Origin: an uncultured Alphaproteobacteria bacterium
GTDB lineage: Bacteria; Pseudomonadota; Alphaproteobacteria; Rs-D84
Length of the DNA: 61,933 nt
Direction: 5' to 3'
Assembly: GCA_944389265.1 (NCBI GenBank)
Contig: CALXLS010000006.1
Span: 1-61,933, forward strand
This document shows, in pieces, positions 15,400 to 54,991 of this stretch. Each line of letters starts with the position of its first letter. The first letter of the stretch is position 1. The notes beneath the pieces are model-generated. The model did no database searches, was not told the DNA's origin, and saw nothing but the letters and a program-made list of their open reading frames with translations. Both the position numbers and the translations under genes were made by a program.

Positions 15400-15423
15400 G
15401 TTCTAACTCCTGTTTTTTCGAAA

Positions 15424-15640
15424 TGAAAAACCACCAAAGTAATTGGTGGTCAGGAGGTTGAGAACAATCCTTAGAATTGTGTCGCGTATTTTGAATATTC
15501 CGCGAACCCTCCTGACCGATTTGATCAGGAGTTTATTTTTCGTCGTAATAATAAAACTGGCGCAATTTGCGCGCCATAGGTACTTATCCCGACGCTAAGG
15601 CAGAGGTTCTCACACCCCATCGACAGAATACCTGTCAACG
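15424..15640 (-). promoter_or_regulatory. Candidate riboswitch/attenuator leader RNA, copy A
   Basis: Copy A is the most divergent of four. In RNA order it has P1 (CTCCTGATC at 15531-15523 with GGTCAGGAGG at 15517-15508), P2 (TCGCG/CGCGA around an AT-rich loop), P3 (ACAAT/ATTGT), a third strand CCTCCTGACC (15457-15448) complementary to the P1 3' arm, and a terminator ACCACCAA/TTGGTGGT (15430-15450) with a T run. The third strand overlaps the terminator, so long-range pairing and termination exclude each other. Compared with the other copies the core reads CCTCCTGACC instead of CCTCCAACC, and all three competing strands changed together. It leads into the broken cysteine-rich gene. The 5' part is longer than in the other copies. 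Confidence 0.75.
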
Positions 15641-43296: not shown

Positions 43297-43365
43297 GGAA
43301 TCTACCCATTTTGTGTGGAGATAAGATTTTGCACTGTATATAAGAAGTGCATTTGGGCAGATTCC
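43297..43365. repeat. Long imperfect inverted repeat next to leader RNA copy B
   Basis: GGAATCTACCCA (43297-43308) and TGGGCAGATTCC (43354-43365) can form a 12-bp stem with one wobble, enclosing a second stem TGCACT/AGTGCA (43330-43335, 43346-43351). It lies where copies A, C and D have a cysteine-rich gene. It may be a small RNA or the scar of a lost gene. Nothing else is visible between 43284 and 43364. Confidence 0.5.
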
Positions 43366-43545
43366 ATAAAAATAACCACCTAATAAAAATATTTAAGGTG
43401 GTTGGAGTTTCTAAACAATAACTTGAATTGCGTGCTTATTCTGTATATTCACACACTCCAACCATAACACACGGTTGGAGATATTTTTCGTCATCTCTGA
43501 CGCAAGTTAGGGCTTAGAATACCCATGTGGTAACGCACCAACACG
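43365..43545 (-). promoter_or_regulatory. Candidate riboswitch/attenuator leader RNA, copy B (orphan)
   Basis: In RNA order: a hairpin CGTC-AGAGAT-GACG, P1 (CTCCAACC at 43480-43473 with GGTTGGAG at 43463-43456), P2 (GTGTG/CACGC around the conserved GAATATACAGAATAAG loop), P3 (CAAT/ATTG), third strand ACTCCAACC, and terminator AACCACCT/AGGTGGTT (43374-43403). The last long-range pair is T-A here, where copies C and D have G-C. A TATAAT at 43551-43556 with a weak -35 lies upstream. No cysteine-rich gene follows; about 110 nt later comes the rpsD terminator. Confidence 0.7.
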
Positions 43546-43774: not shown

Positions 43775-44830
43775 ATGGTAGAGAAGAAAAATATTGTTTT
43801 AACGGGTATACGTCCAACGGGTGCTTTGCATATAGGTCATCTGGTAGGTTCATTGATTGCGAATGTAGATATTCAAAATAAGGGCGATTATGACCGTATG
43901 TATGGTATGATTGCAGATGCACAAGGACTGACTGATAATTTTGATAATCCAGATAAAGTTCGCCAAAATGTTATGGAAGTCGCACTAGATATGCTAGCGG
44001 TTGGGTATGACCCGAATAAGACGACTATGTTTATTCAGTCAGAAGTTTCTGAATTAACAGAGTTAACTTTTTACTATATGAATTTAGTAACTGTGGCGCG
44101 CTTACAACGCAATCCGACTGTAAAGACGGAAATATCACAGAAGGAAAAGTTTAACGGTGGTGTGCCAGTTGGTTTCTTTACATATCCAATTTCTCAGGCT
44201 GCGGACATAACTGCTTTTGATGCGAATATTGTTCCTGTTGGGGAAGACCAATTACCGATGTTAGAACAAGCAAGCGAGATTGTTCATAAGTTTAACAGTA
44301 TCTACGGTGAAACCCTGGTTATGCCGCATGCTGTGGTTCCGCAATCAAAGGCTGCAGCAAGATTGCCTGGTACAGATGGTAATGCAAAAATGAGCAAATC
44401 TTTGAATAATTGTATTTATCTAAAAGATTCTGCGGATGAAATCGCAGCAAAGGTAAAAACAATGTTTACTGACCCAAATCATTTGCGGGTAGAAGACCCA
44501 GGGAATACGACAGAAAACCCCGTATTTATATATATTTCTGTTTTTGCAAAACAGGAACATTTTGCCGCGTTTTTGCCTGAGTATTCTGGCTATGAAGAAC
44601 TTGCAGCACATTATGAACGTGGTGGACTTGGGGATGTAAAGGTAAAGAAGTTTTTAAATTCTGTACTGCAAGAGACATTGCGTCCTATACGTGAAAGACG
44701 TGAAGAATTTGCGCGCAATCCTGATAAGGTTATGGATATTTTGCGCGAAGGAACAAAGGTGGCGCGTAATGCTGCTGCAGAAACAGTTATGCGTGTAAAG
44801 CGTGCGATGAAATTAAACTATTTTGAGTAA
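43775..44830 (+). CDS. trpS: Tryptophanyl-tRNA synthetase
   Basis: The 351-residue class I synthetase has the HIGH motif as HIGH in [10 protein letters not shown] (about 17-26), the GEDQ motif, and the KMSKS motif KMSKS in [14 protein letters not shown] precedes the ATG. Its upstream leader peptide suggests control by tryptophan supply. The SIMPL gene follows after 27 bp. Confidence 0.97.
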
Positions 44831-46558: not shown

Positions 46559-46735
46559 TGACACAGGGTGTTCTTGTGTTGAGGCATCTAAACCTCTATG
46601 CTGTGTGTCCGTGGGGACATAAAATACCTCCAACTGTATTCTGGTTGGAGGATGGTGAATATATTGAATAAGCCATGCTATCTCACAGTATATAGTTTAG
46701 AACCTCCAACCACCTAATTTTATGGTGGTTTTTTT
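46559..46735 (+). promoter_or_regulatory. Candidate riboswitch/attenuator leader RNA, copy C
   Basis: Elements in order: a hairpin GTCC/GGAC, P1 (CCTCCAAC 46627-46634 with GGTTGGAGG 46643-46651), P2 (ATGG/CCAT, 46652-46676, with the conserved GAATATATTGAATAAG loop), P3 (CTAT/ATAG, 46678-46695), the third strand CCTCCAACC (46703-46711), and the terminator AACCACC/GGTGGTT (46708-46730) with T7. The third strand pairs perfectly with GGTTGGAGG and shares AACC with the terminator, so the two states exclude each other. The cysteine-rich gene starts 33 nt after the T run behind a near-perfect AAGGAGGT. No known riboswitch class fits that I recognise. Confidence 0.8.
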
Positions 46736-46768
46736 CGTTCGCAAAAACTGAAAAAAGGAGGTCTAAGA

Positions 46769-47371
46769 ATGAAAAAAACAATTAATATGGTTGTGCTATG
46801 TGTTGCGTTAAGTTGTTCAGGAAATGTATATGGCGCATATGATTGTTCGTATACAAGTTCAAATTTGCCGTCAGGATATTCGTTGGGAAATCCCTATTTA
46901 CCTGATAGTAAATGTACTAATACTTCTAGTGCATATTATTGTAGTGACACTTATAAAGTATGTGATAAGTTTTATATGTGTAGTTCTTGTTCGTCTGGAT
47001 ATTACCCCACTACAACCACTATAAAGGGCGAGCTGTGTAATTCTGTTGCATATTCTAGGTGTTGTAAGCCTTGTACTGATTGTGGTGGGGCTACAAATGA
47101 TTGGGAATATTATAATGAGAGCCATCAGCGCAGAACGATTCAGACATGTAATTGTGATGGGACTTGTAGCACAACCTATGAGTATAGGTGTTATATTGGA
47201 TATTACGGTTCCCCCAGTGATAGTGCAAGTGGTTGTACAAAATGTCCAGGAAAAGGCTATGCCAATCCGGGTAGTAAATATATTACAAACTGCTTTATAA
47301 TACCTGGGACAACATTAAATGATGAGACAGGGGAGTATACATTTACTGACGAGTGTTATTATACAGAATAA
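46769..47371 (+). CDS. Secreted cysteine-rich protein with C-terminal CxYxE motif
   Basis: The 200-residue protein has a signal peptide (about 1-22, ending YGA) and a mature part with 19 cysteines in short EGF/furin-like spacings (CSSCSSGYYP, CCKPCTDC, GCTKCPGKG). The C terminus, CFIIPGT...DETGEYTFTDECYYTE, is shared with the broken gene at 14756 and the protein at 53559. It is exported, probably disulphide-bonded, and of unknown role; adhesion or surface interaction is a guess. AAAGGAGGT before the ATG is the strongest Shine-Dalgarno in the window. The gene sits behind leader RNA copy C and ends at its own terminator. Confidence 0.8.
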   Translation: MKKTINMVVLCVALSCSGNVYGAYDCSYTSSNLPSGYSLGNPYLPDSKCTNTSSAYYCSDTYKVCDKFYMCSSCSSGYYPTTTTIKGELCNSVAYSRCCKPCTDCGGATNDWEYYNESHQRRTIQTCNCDGTCSTTYEYRCYIGYYGSPSDSASGCTKCPGKGYANPGSKYITNCFIIPGTTLNDETGEYTFTDECYYTE

Positions 47372-53558: not shown

Positions 53559-53864
53559 TTATTCTACATATGGACAAATATCTGTAATTTGATATGTTCC
53601 AGTGCTATCTGTATATGTTCCTGGTGCCAAATACATAAAGCATGCAGGGTAACTTTCTCTTTTGTTTTCAGATAGGCAACTTAATGCGGATGTGTTGTTG
53701 CTGCCTCCAACTGCAATATATCCAGATGGGCATTGATTATAATTTTGTACTATTTTTATATTGTAATAATAAACAGGTACATAATTTGTTGGGCAAGCAC
53801 CTGCCGCAAATAAATTTTTTGTTGCAAGCAAAGCAAGCATTATAAATATAGATATTTTTTTCAT
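53559..53864 (-). CDS. Small secreted cysteine-rich protein with C-terminal CxYxE motif
   Basis: The 101-residue protein has a signal peptide (about 1-20, ending LFA) and five cysteines in the mature part. Its C terminus, CFMYLAPGT..DSTGTYQITDICPYVE, matches those of the proteins at 46769 and 14756 although the rest differs, so the motif is likely functional. It starts one base after the stop of the upstream gene, with GGGAG inside that gene's end. Last gene of the operon behind leader RNA copy D. Confidence 0.75.
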   Translation of the reverse strand: MKKISIFIMLALLATKNLFAAGACPTNYVPVYYYNIKIVQNYNQCPSGYIAVGGSNNTSALSCLSENKRESYPACFMYLAPGTYTDSTGTYQITDICPYVE

Positions 53865-53865
53865 T

Positions 53866-54312
53866 TTAATTGCTCCCTTCTAAATTTTGGAAAAATGCTT
53901 CTGCGCTATTGCTAGAACCGTCTGATGGGTTAACGGCGCGTCTTGTGCAATTTTGCAAGCAATCTGTTTCATCGTCATAAATTGCAACAAGAATAAATTT
54001 TGATTCTGCAGGGTATAAAAGTTTGGACCAACAATATTTATTTGCAGCAGAAGAAGTTCTGCTTCTATAAATTTCTGATGTGACACTTCCTACTGAACCA
54101 CTAGAATTAGAACATATCCCGACACCACGCCGCCTTAAAGGGTTTACTGCTGTCATCTCATACCTTCCGACCCAATCGGAACCCCCTTCACCAACCTCTG
54201 TTAACATGCCGTAGGCATATGATTCTTTATTTACGCATAAAGTATGTGCTTGTGAATAATTACAGAATATGACGGAACAAAAAATTATAAAAATATTCGT
54301 ATAGATTTTCAT
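53866..54312 (-). CDS. Small secreted cysteine-containing protein, family 2
   Basis: The 148-residue protein has a signal peptide (about 1-22, ending SQA) and five cysteines after it. It resembles the upstream neighbour: a Gly-rich segment with Trp, then GVGIC, K-Y-C-W with Pro shortly after, and a D-C-x2-N-C pair near the end. It lacks the CxYxE C terminus. GGAGG precedes the ATG. Function unknown; the repeated pattern suggests a duplicated gene pair. Confidence 0.7.
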   Translation of the reverse strand: MKIYTNIFIIFCSVIFCNYSQAHTLCVNKESYAYGMLTEVGEGGSDWVGRYEMTAVNPLRRRGVGICSNSSGSVGSVTSEIYRSRTSSAANKYCWSKLLYPAESKFILVAIYDDETDCLQNCTRRAVNPSDGSSNSAEAFFQNLEGSN

Positions 54313-54334
54313 TTTATCCTCCGGCGTTTAAAAT

Positions 54335-54778
54335 TTAATAAGTATCTGCCAGTGATGATAATAATCTTCGAATAAGATCAGACGAACCAGGTATTTCCCC
54401 TGCACATATGCTAGCACATTGATCATTACAAGTTGTTTCACTAGATGGTGTAGAATAAGTAGATACCCAATTTGAAAGTGCCGGAGAAATCATCCTGCAC
54501 CAACATTGTGTATTAGAACCGGGGCTATAAGCCAAATTTATTGCGGGGGATGAACCTCGTTGTGCGCATAAAGCAAGTCCCTTAAATGTTATTTCTGTGT
54601 TGTTTGAATAGCAACTTGCTTTCCATTGAATTCCACCGCCACCACTGCCACCAGTGTACGAGTCTACTTGACAAGAAGACAAACTATTAGGAATACACTT
54701 AATAAAAGTATCGCAAATTCCTGTGGTTGTTATAAATAGTCCCACCATAAAAACTGGGAGTATTTGTTTTATGTTCAT
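54335..54778 (-). CDS. Small secreted cysteine-rich protein, family 2
   Basis: The 147-residue protein starts at ATG 54778, which has GGAGG 5 nt upstream; a longer reading to 54829 would run into the leader terminator. A signal peptide (about 1-22) is followed by about nine cysteines, with CWC in the middle and C-x3-C-x3-C near the end. The arrangement G-x-x-W...GLALC...QCWC...P...TCNDQC parallels the next gene. It is the first gene after leader RNA copy D. Confidence 0.7.
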   Translation of the reverse strand: MNIKQILPVFMVGLFITTTGICDTFIKCIPNSLSSCQVDSYTGGSGGGGIQWKASCYSNNTEITFKGLALCAQRGSSPAINLAYSPGSNTQCWCRMISPALSNWVSTYSTPSSETTCNDQCASICAGEIPGSSDLIRRLLSSLADTY

Positions 54779-54818: not shown

Positions 54819-54991
54819 AAAAAAACCACCGAATATTTAAGGTGGTTGGAGGTTCATAGCTATAATTTGGTATAGTGTGCTTATTCAGTATATTCACAAC
54901 CCTCCAACCAAAATGATTGGAGACAATATCGTCCATTTCTGAACGCCAAATTTACGGGCTATGACACCCCAATACATCAACACGACGTATC
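54819..54991 (-). promoter_or_regulatory. Candidate riboswitch/attenuator leader RNA, copy D
   Basis: In RNA order: a hairpin CGTTC-AGAAAT-GGACG, P1 (CTCCAATC with GGTTGGAG; 54922-54915 and 54909-54902), P2 (TGTG/CACA with the conserved AATATACTGAATAAG loop), P3 (CTATA/TATAG), third strand CCTCCAACC (54852-54844), and terminator AACCACC/GGTGGTT (54824-54847) with T7. It leads into the three-gene cysteine-rich operon, 41 nt before the first start codon. It is closest to copy B in the 5' half (shared GTGTTGRTG and AGARAT hairpin). Confidence 0.8.

What the first reader, a model, noticed from the sequence alone, without database searches (positions are those of the whole stretch)
46559..46768. 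Four-copy riboswitch-like leader RNA with mutually exclusive pairings
Four segments (15424-15640, 43365-43545, 46559-46735, 54819-54991) share one architecture: P1 hairpin, P2 hairpin with a conserved GAATATAYWGAATAAG-type loop, P3 hairpin, then a third strand identical to the 5' arm of P1, overlapping an intrinsic terminator. The third strand can pair with the 3' arm of P1 to close a three-way junction around P2 and P3, which blocks the terminator. If P1 forms, the terminator forms. The three competing strands co-vary: CCTCCAACC in C and D, ACTCCAACC in B, CCTCCTGACC in A, each matched by its partners; P2 and P3 stems change sequence but keep pairing. Three copies lead into secreted cysteine-rich protein genes. 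I recognise no known riboswitch, T-box or leader class.
Basis: partly seen in the sequence, partly recalled or inferred. Interest (0 to 1): 0.95.

Follow-up and report, generated by a model that had tools for sequence, protein, structure and literature searches.

The report
Self-silencing antisense leaders of secreted genes
In a small-genome gut bacterium the same folded RNA leader recurs across the genome, mostly in front of genes for predicted exported proteins, and it likely keeps each gene off by pairing two copy-specific segments inside itself, a scheme resembling the antisense RNA that phage P1 uses for immunity.

Summary
The four segments and their competing helices are real, but they are half of a larger element. 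A covariance model finds 15 strong copies in this ~0.93 Mb Ca. Enterousia-like genome; related genomes have up to 45, and 178 of 190 genomes searched in the order have matches. Covariation strongly supports both alternative states.

Order and topology (a, b, three-way-junction RNA carrying b' and a', then the gene) match phage P1 C4 antisense RNA with its annotated a1/b1 sites. The 3' half gives sub-threshold matches to Rfam sRNA-Xcc1; one locus in another alphaproteobacterial family hits both models. Thirty genuine sRNA-Xcc1 loci carry a1/b1 and RBS-side complementarity too, so that family appears C4-like.

Best reading: a multiplied C4/sRNA-Xcc1-like antisense leader with an added terminator, not a metabolite riboswitch. 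Of 134 copies with a gene behind them, 108 look exported and 51 are cysteine-rich. The fold rests on covariation; termination control, processing and RBS blocking are inferred.

The parts
46561..46737 (+). copy C, whole leader RNA (model match)
   Evidence: R1 E 1.5e-35, R2 E 1.6e-38; C was among the seeds of R1 and R2
46561..46579 (+). C: 5' hairpin PA with GTGTT pentaloop
   Evidence: 7 of 7 pairs with change on both sides in A4
46587..46593 (+). C: segment a (loop of GAGG..CCUC hairpin H0), pairs with a'
   Evidence: all 6 pairs counted covary, 98.8% paired
46597..46605 (+). C: segment b, pairs with b' in the P3 loop
   Evidence: 140 of 148 copies have >=6 bp
46627..46634 (+). C: P1 5' arm (CCTCCAAC)
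46643..46651 (+). C: P1 3' arm = 5' arm of the outer helix (GGTTGGAGG)
   Evidence: pairs with P1 5' arm or third strand
46652..46676 (+). C: P2 hairpin with conserved loop GAATATATTGAATAAG
   Evidence: P2 stem 74.5% paired in A4 over three pairs
46678..46695 (+). C: P3 hairpin, loop carries b'
   Evidence: A-U 35 / U-A 25 at one pair
46695..46701 (+). C: segment a'
46703..46711 (+). C: third strand CCTCCAACC
   Evidence: outer helix 98.7% paired
46708..46735 (+). C: intrinsic terminator AACCACC..GGTGGTT and T run
   Evidence: sequence; helix 98.3% paired in A4
46757..46767 (+). C: SD GGAGG and spacer with CTAAG, complementary to third strand and a'
   Evidence: by eye; a'+CCTCC against own RBS over 123 copies, z -6.6
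46769..47371 (+). gene after C: predicted secreted, cysteine-rich protein, 200 aa
54817..54990 (-). copy D leader
   Evidence: R2 E 7.5e-38
54335..54778 (-). gene after D: predicted secreted protein, 147 aa, 10 Cys
43367..43543 (-). copy B leader, no gene behind it
   Evidence: R2 E 3.4e-30
15422..15638 (-). copy A leader (CCTCCTGACC class, longer insert); frame behind it is interrupted
   Evidence: R2 E 6.5e-23

Best explanation
It is a cis-encoded antisense-RNA leader, apparently a divergent relative of sRNA-Xcc1 and laid out like the C4 antisense RNA of phage P1, that likely holds its own gene off by pairing segments a' and b' with segments a and b near the 5' end of the same transcript so that the terminator behind it forms. 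Shown by sequence and covariation: the hairpins, a/a', b/b', P1, P2, P3, the outer helix (P1 3' arm with third strand) and the terminator stem. Predicted from energies: in the lone leader the a/a' + P1 + terminator state is the most stable; once the RNA is cut at the GG that starts the outer helix, the outer helix forms and gives a three-way-junction antisense RNA exposing b' and a'. Inferred: outer-helix formation weakens the terminator and lets transcription through; an RNase P-like cut could release the module; in read-through mRNA a' plus CUCC pairs with the Shine-Dalgarno region and dampens translation. What shifts the balance (a trans RNA, a protein on the conserved P2 loop, or processing) is unknown.
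For: Covariation of both states. a/a' >=6 bp in 143 and b/b' >=6 bp in 140 of 148 copies, mean scores well above swapped controls. Phage P1 record: promoter, a1, b1, c4, a2, b2, icd in that order; a1 sits in a GG..CC hairpin, b' in the P3 loop, a' between P3 and the outer stem; Rfam C4 and c4-a1b1 both hit it. RF02221 matches at E 1.4e-6 to 2.4e-5 at three places of this genome, and at E <= 0.1 in 19 of 20 genomes that I chose for their R1 or R2 hits; locus G369:C8 scores 51.7 bits with RF02221 and 47.8 bits with R2. Thirty RF02221 loci: a1, b1 and RBS-side complementarity to a' and b' above shuffles, 0 of 500 each. Enterousia a'+CCTCC against own RBS: 0 of 300 within-genome swaps reach it, 123 of the 134 copies with an ORF, 16 genomes. 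Outer helix starts with GG in 130 of 143, as described for the C4 cleavage site (PMC5320573, passages).
Against: No Rfam RNA family other than tRNA reaches its cut-off in the window; C4 (RF01695) has no credible match in the genome (best E 1.74), and R2 finds neither the P1 C4 leader nor any of the 30 sRNA-Xcc1 loci at E <= 1 (three weak hits elsewhere in the P1 stretch). b' shows no excess complementarity to the RBS (108 of 300 swaps reach it); a' alone is weak within genomes (z -2.1, 5 of 300; z -5.1 when swapped over all copies). In genome G019, 24 of 32 RBSs contain GGAGA whatever the a' (17 distinct), so complementarity there is not clearly copy-specific. Exclusion of the terminator is partial. 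The outer helix is favoured in only 3 of 143 uncut leaders. Copy B and tandem copy E1 have no gene directly behind them. No expression data.
Confidence: 0.68

Rival explanations
1. A ligand-binding riboswitch: a metabolite or ion binds the pseudoknotted a/b core or the conserved P2 loop and shifts the fold between terminated and read-through forms.
For: Compact, pseudoknotted leader with conserved unpaired loops (5' pentaloop, GAAUAUAYWGAAUAAG), a terminator and an alternative helix; tandem copies before one gene.
Against: Downstream genes share no pathway: exported unknowns, small HTH proteins, PAP2, glycosyltransferase, superinfection immunity. The variable paired segments and RBS complementarity are antisense features; related loci are antisense-like.
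Confidence: 0.12
2. Protein-controlled attenuator: an RNA-binding protein recognises the GAAUAUA..GAAUAAG loop or the 5' pentaloop and decides between terminator and outer helix for a regulon of exported proteins.
For: The P2 loop is a strongly conserved sequence and resembles the loop halves of sRNA-Xcc1 (by eye); up to 45 copies in one genome suggest a shared input.
Against: No candidate protein was sought or found; it does not explain copy-specific a/a' and b/b'. It can coexist with the antisense reading.
Confidence: 0.13
3. A stand-alone trans-acting small RNA gene family with an ordinary constitutive terminator and no control of the gene behind it.
For: -10-like boxes and terminators in the copies read by eye; orphan copy B and tandem copy E1; sRNA-Xcc1 was reported as an 88-nt sRNA (PMC2996969, passages).
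Against: 134 of 148 copies are followed by an SD-like motif and ORF within 160 nt, 123 of them with the start codon at most 36 nt after the model end, leaving little room for a second promoter; RBS complementarity is to the own gene.
Confidence: 0.07

Closest known systems
C4 antisense RNA of phages P1/P7 with a1 b1 and a2 b2 targets (Rfam RF01695 C4, RF03163 c4-a1b1)
   Same: Order promoter, a1 (in a small GG..CC hairpin), b1, antisense RNA, RBS of the next gene; three-way junction with b' in the P3 loop and a' before the 3' arm of the outer stem; outer stem starting with GG.
   Different: No C4 covariance match; P1 C4 is followed directly by a2/b2 with no T run seen by eye, here a terminator overlaps the outer stem; no b2 signal at the RBS; SD can pair with the CUCC of the outer stem; many copies per genome before predicted exported proteins.
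sRNA-Xcc1 (Rfam RF02221)
   Same: Outer helix, P2, P3 and the following ACC align; P2 loop halves GAAUA..A and GAAUAAG shared, by eye; sub-threshold hits in this genome; bridging locus in another alphaproteobacterial family.
   Different: Below the 53-bit cut-off in all 20 genomes tested; by eye sRNA-Xcc1 has an extra hairpin inside the P2 loop and, in several loci, a terminator-like hairpin before the antisense module rather than after it.
C4-like Group 1 sRNAs of Acinetobacter baumannii (PMC5320573, passages seen)
   Same: Several chromosomal C4-type RNAs in one genome with variable a' regions, apparently processed at a GG motif.
   Different: There described as sRNAs matching the Rfam C4 motif; here cis leaders before genes, without a C4 match.

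Membership tests
C4 antisense RNA (RF01695) | Rfam covariance match over the gathering score | tested here: not met
   Own genome best E 1.74 at 15.4 bits against 45; the P1 leader itself scores 68.8
C4 antisense RNA (RF01695) | Three-way junction with b' in the P3 loop and a' between P3 and the outer stem | tested here: met
   Covariation of outer helix, P2, P3, a/a', b/b' and comparison with the P1 sequence
C4 antisense RNA (RF01695) | a1 and b1 sites upstream of the antisense RNA | tested here: met
   143 and 140 of 148 copies with >=6 bp
C4 antisense RNA (RF01695) | a2 and b2 sites at the RBS of the next gene | tested here: inconclusive
   a'+CCTCC against RBS z -6.6; a' alone z -2.1; b' z -0.3
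C4 antisense RNA (RF01695) | RNase P cut at the 5' end of the outer stem | not testable with these tools
   Only the GG motif can be seen: 130 of 143
sRNA-Xcc1 (RF02221) | Rfam covariance match over the gathering score (53 bits) | tested here: not met
   Best 42.5 bits in own genome; 0 of 20 genomes over the cut-off
sRNA-Xcc1 (RF02221) | Detectable homology of the 3' half | tested here: met
   E 1.4e-6, 1.8e-5, 2.4e-5 in own genome; 19 of 20 chosen genomes at E <= 0.1
sRNA-Xcc1 (RF02221) | About 88-nt mature RNA with mapped ends | not testable with these tools
   Reported for Xanthomonas (PMC2996969, passages); no RNA data here
Metabolite riboswitch | Genes behind the copies belong to one pathway (usual, not strictly required) | tested here: not met
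   Mixed genes in 94 proteins scanned of 127 closed ORFs of 45 aa or more
Metabolite riboswitch | Binding of a small molecule | not testable with these tools
   needs in-line probing or a termination assay

The most novel reading that the evidence does not exclude
These reduced-genome gut bacteria run an address-coded RNA silencing system: dozens of copies of a phage-immunity-type antisense RNA, each with its own two-part address, each locking one predicted exported-protein gene at transcription and translation, so that released antisense RNAs or changes of address could decide which surface proteins a cell displays. It would also redefine sRNA-Xcc1 as the C4-type antisense leader of integron and mobile-element genes.
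Probability: 0.25. Interest if true: 0.88.

Novelty: new variant of a known kind. Interest (0 to 1): 0.72.

Why it matters
It would turn a phage immunity device into a genome-wide control layer for exported proteins in host-associated bacteria with about 1 Mb of DNA. It would also explain sRNA-Xcc1, reported so far as a trans-acting sRNA, as an antisense leader with target sites on both sides of itself. One Rfam family would gain its missing 5' half, and predicted a/b pairs can be tested one by one with reporters.

Tried and rejected
Rfam at gathering score: only four tRNAs in the window. Integron attC site: considered because sRNA-Xcc1 is linked to cassettes; the P1 arms CTCCAAC..GTTGGAG do not fit the R-box consensus as I recall it, and the copies read sit between a promoter-like box and a terminator; dropped without a formal test. 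Leader peptide: by reading, a frame runs from 46558 into the P2 loop in copy C but not in copies D and A; dropped, no call made. Kissing of the 5' pentaloop with the P2 loop (GUGUUC with GAAUAU): not among the 90 top covarying pairs printed, and too conserved to test. Cysteine-linked control: 51 of 134 only. b' pairing with the RBS in Enterousia: no signal. The first test of a/a' and b/b' lost 35 of 148 copies because my search string missed the ACTCC class; repeated with all 148. The first structure string for A4 was off by one column and was not used (corrected). In one search the sRNA-Xcc1 test used wide windows and showed no b1 signal (15.9 against 15.5); with narrower windows did. Fold statistics use 143 of 148 copies; 5 without a 6-bp outer helix were dropped. 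In one search two of the weak matches lie on the opposite strand of strong copies and were not counted. Literature: sRNA-Xcc1 with 'C4 antisense' gave one paper, which lists the two as separate annotations (PMC12189769, passages); 'C4 antisense' with Alphaproteobacteria gave none. The original sRNA-Xcc1 paper of 2011 is not held and is known to me only from its title in other papers. A search for papers on structured leader RNAs in gut Alphaproteobacteria gave nothing relevant in the listing.

Full report
What is there. The four segments were read directly. All four contain P1, P2, P3, a third strand repeating the P1 5' arm, and an overlapping intrinsic terminator. In the window only tRNAs reach an Rfam cut-off. 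A pattern search of the whole genome for the P2 loop, with up to one mismatch, found seven places: three in the window and four outside it, namely a tandem pair and a single copy on contig C4 and one on C2. Reading these showed that the element begins well before P1, just after a -10-like box (by eye).

How many copies. A covariance model from seven copies (R1) found 20 places in the own genome at E <= 1. Among the genomes drawn as relatives 44 of 59 (own included) have a match at E <= 0.01, among them 33 of 34 other genomes of the genus, with up to 45 copies in one genome. A second model from 67 copies (R2) gives 15 copies at E <= 2.1e-21 in the own genome and one more at 1.3e-6, then weak matches. 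It finds the element in 178 of 190 genomes of the order at E <= 0.001; at most 14 places per genome were scored there. In the class it finds 15 of 289 genomes at E <= 1e-7, of which three belong to the genus and 12 lie outside the order. E-values of both models are rough, and their seeds match by construction. The best TrpS match (ORF 43775-44830, named by eye) is 96% to an uncultured proteobacterium; the nearest record with a species name is Candidatus Enterousia intestinigallinarum, 82%. A paper places Enterousia in GTDB order Rs-D84, with MAGs of 748 to 1,015 kb in its table (PMC12306168, passages).

Anatomy. I used 148 copies from 28 genomes: 128 from 100 sources and 20 from 21 sources, taken from the listed matches; genome G019 gives 32 of them. 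From 5' to 3': hairpin PA with a five-base loop; hairpin H0 (GGG..CCC) with loop a; tail b; hairpin Hx; P1; P2 with the conserved loop; P3 with loop b'; tail a'; third strand; terminator. The best helix between a and a' is at least 6 bp in 143 of 148 and between b and b' in 140 of 148 (G-U counted), with 75 distinct a and 141 distinct b helices; mean scores are 17.0 and 17.9 against 10.3 and 11.9 when partners are swapped between copies. Mutual information over 128 copies, without a structure given to the calculation, puts PA, a/a', P3, H0, b/b' and a pair linking the P1 3' arm to the third strand beyond P1 among its top pairs. That alignment was fitted to R1, which contains PA, a/a', P1, P2 and the terminator but not H0, b/b', P3 or the outer helix, so the latter four are independent of the fit. 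Pair counts on 67 copies: whole-structure score 0.482 against 0.173 for the a/b-paired state and 0.478 against 0.158 for the outer-helix state, 0 of 500 shuffles each. The b/b' columns are poorly aligned there (55 to 70% paired), and P2 is 75% paired over three of its pairs.

What the genes are. 134 of 148 copies have an SD-like motif (permissive list) and an ORF of at least 40 codons within 160 nt; in 123 the start codon is at most 36 nt after the model end. Some of the 14 misses lie at contig ends. In the own genome 14 of 17 copies have an ORF; B, the first of the tandem pair and A (interrupted frame) do not. By a crude rule for a hydrophobic N-terminus 108 of 134 look exported, against 16 of 60 other ORFs of the window that I picked as its main genes. 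51 of 134 have 4% cysteine or more. I scanned 94 of the 127 closed ORFs of 45 aa or more. Pfam gives 30 families at E <= 0.01, each in few members: ephrin-receptor-like (6), NCD3G (5), HTH_3 (4), PAP2 (3) and singles such as a superinfection-immunity protein and YdaS. PHROGs adds phage-type regulators and a GtrB-like protein. This mix speaks against a metabolite pathway.

What it is related to. RF02221 (sRNA-Xcc1) aligns to the 3' half of copy C at 28.8 bits, its outer stem being the P1 3' arm with the third strand, followed by CCACC. In the own genome it scores 42.5, 37.7 and 37.2 bits at three places, below the cut-off of 53. In 20 genomes chosen because R1 or R2 hit them, 19 have a match at E <= 0.1 and none over the cut-off. 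Locus G369:C8 is matched by both RF02221 (51.7 bits) and R2 (47.8 bits). By eye it has a GTGTT-loop 5' hairpin and an sRNA-Xcc1-type P2 loop. Over the phylum, 39 of 398 genomes have RF02221 over the cut-off. I examined the 30 loci returned from these: upstream lies a small hairpin whose loop is complementary to a' and a tail complementary to b'. Complementarity of own segments exceeds all 500 shuffles for a1 (z 11.2), b1 (6.9), the 75 nt behind with a' (3.7) and with b' (8.3); helices of at least 6 bp are found for a1 in 29, b1 in 21 and b2 in 26 of 30. So sRNA-Xcc1 appears to be an antisense RNA with target sites before and after it. Papers report it as an 88-nt sRNA (PMC2996969, passages) located upstream of symE in Xanthomonas integron cassettes (PMC12444791, passages).

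The phage P1 record annotates exactly this order: P1c4 promoter, a1, b1, C4 RNA, a2, b2, icd. In its sequence a1 (TTGACAG) lies in a GG..CC hairpin, b' in the P3 loop and a' before the outer stem 3' arm. Rfam finds C4 and c4-a1b1 there. By contrast RF01695 has no credible match in our genome, and R2 matches neither the P1 C4 leader nor the 30 sRNA-Xcc1 loci. I therefore say 'works like C4 and is probably related to sRNA-Xcc1', not 'is a C4'.

How it most likely works. Predicted folds of the uncut leader contain P1 in 139, a/a' in 140 and the terminator in 140 of 143 copies, and the outer helix in 1; forcing the outer helix costs 8.7 kcal/mol on average before the terminator is complete, and it is favoured in 3 of 143. 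When the RNA starts at the outer helix, which begins with GG in 130 of 143, the outer helix forms in 132 of 143. C4 is reported to be cut by RNase P at such a GG (PMC5320573, passages). The predicted default is thus a terminated leader. Occupation of a/b, or a cut, would free the antisense module and weaken the terminator, since both need AACC; the remaining ACC still pairs in 122 of 143. In read-through mRNA, a' with CUCC is complementary to the SD and spacer of its own gene more than to those of other copies in the same genome (-9.11 against -8.08 kcal/mol, 0 of 300 swaps, 123 of the 134 copies with an ORF). By eye, copy A's third strand CCUCCUG matches its SD CAGGAG. a' alone is only weakly so within genomes (5 of 300; z -5.1 when swapped over all copies), and b' not at all (108 of 300). 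All these functional steps are inferred.

Addresses. Within each of seven genomes with at least eight copies in my set nearly every (a, b) string pair is unique (32 of 32 in G019, 14 of 14 in G027, 16 of 17 in G000); in the own genome the two tandem copies before one gene have the same a and b. Since b varies so much, uniqueness alone does not prove selection for orthogonality.

Verdict. The riboswitch reading gives way to an antisense leader of C4/sRNA-Xcc1 type with a different terminator arrangement and a large chromosomal expansion. In the held library I found one paper with both sRNA-Xcc1 and C4 antisense, which keeps them apart, and none with C4 antisense and Alphaproteobacteria; that library lacks most subscription journals.

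Noticed in passing
L008:1501-1896 (G000:C4:20557-20952): Two leaders in tandem, each with its own -10-like box and terminator by eye, share the same a and b segments and precede one secreted-protein gene.
   Followed up: partly
L198:12023-12197, L199:8444-8617, L200:771-945 (IMG/VR contigs): The leader occurs on three contigs filed as viral (L198 and L200 give the same score, so may be one sequence). On L198 it precedes a predicted secreted 316-aa ORF on a contig whose nearby small ORFs look holin- or endolysin-like by eye, so phage carriage is possible.
   Followed up: partly
L257 (G000:C2:188244-188336, minus strand): A copy in the same genome scores better with sRNA-Xcc1 (42.5 bits) than with R2 (27.1 bits), is followed by a terminator-like hairpin and T run, and has no start codon directly behind it in the 110 bases read.
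   Followed up: partly
G407:C28:153, G279:C4:153, G262:C37:144, G262:C30:145: In other alphaproteobacteria several matches start about 150 bases from a contig end, as if assembly broke at a repeated or mobile sequence.
   Followed up: no
L252:270-320 and L222-L226: By eye, in phage P1 and in several sRNA-Xcc1 loci a terminator-like hairpin with a T run lies between b1 and the antisense RNA, in some preceded by a competing GCGG..CCGC-type hairpin; this may be a second attenuator.
   Followed up: no
window 53559-54778, minus strand: Three consecutive small genes for predicted secreted proteins follow leader D and may form one operon.
   Followed up: no
alignment A4, model positions 25 and 115: A base just after the GGG of H0 covaries with a base just before P3 (C-G 30, U-A 24 of 67), outside any helix described here; possibly a tertiary contact.
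   Followed up: partly
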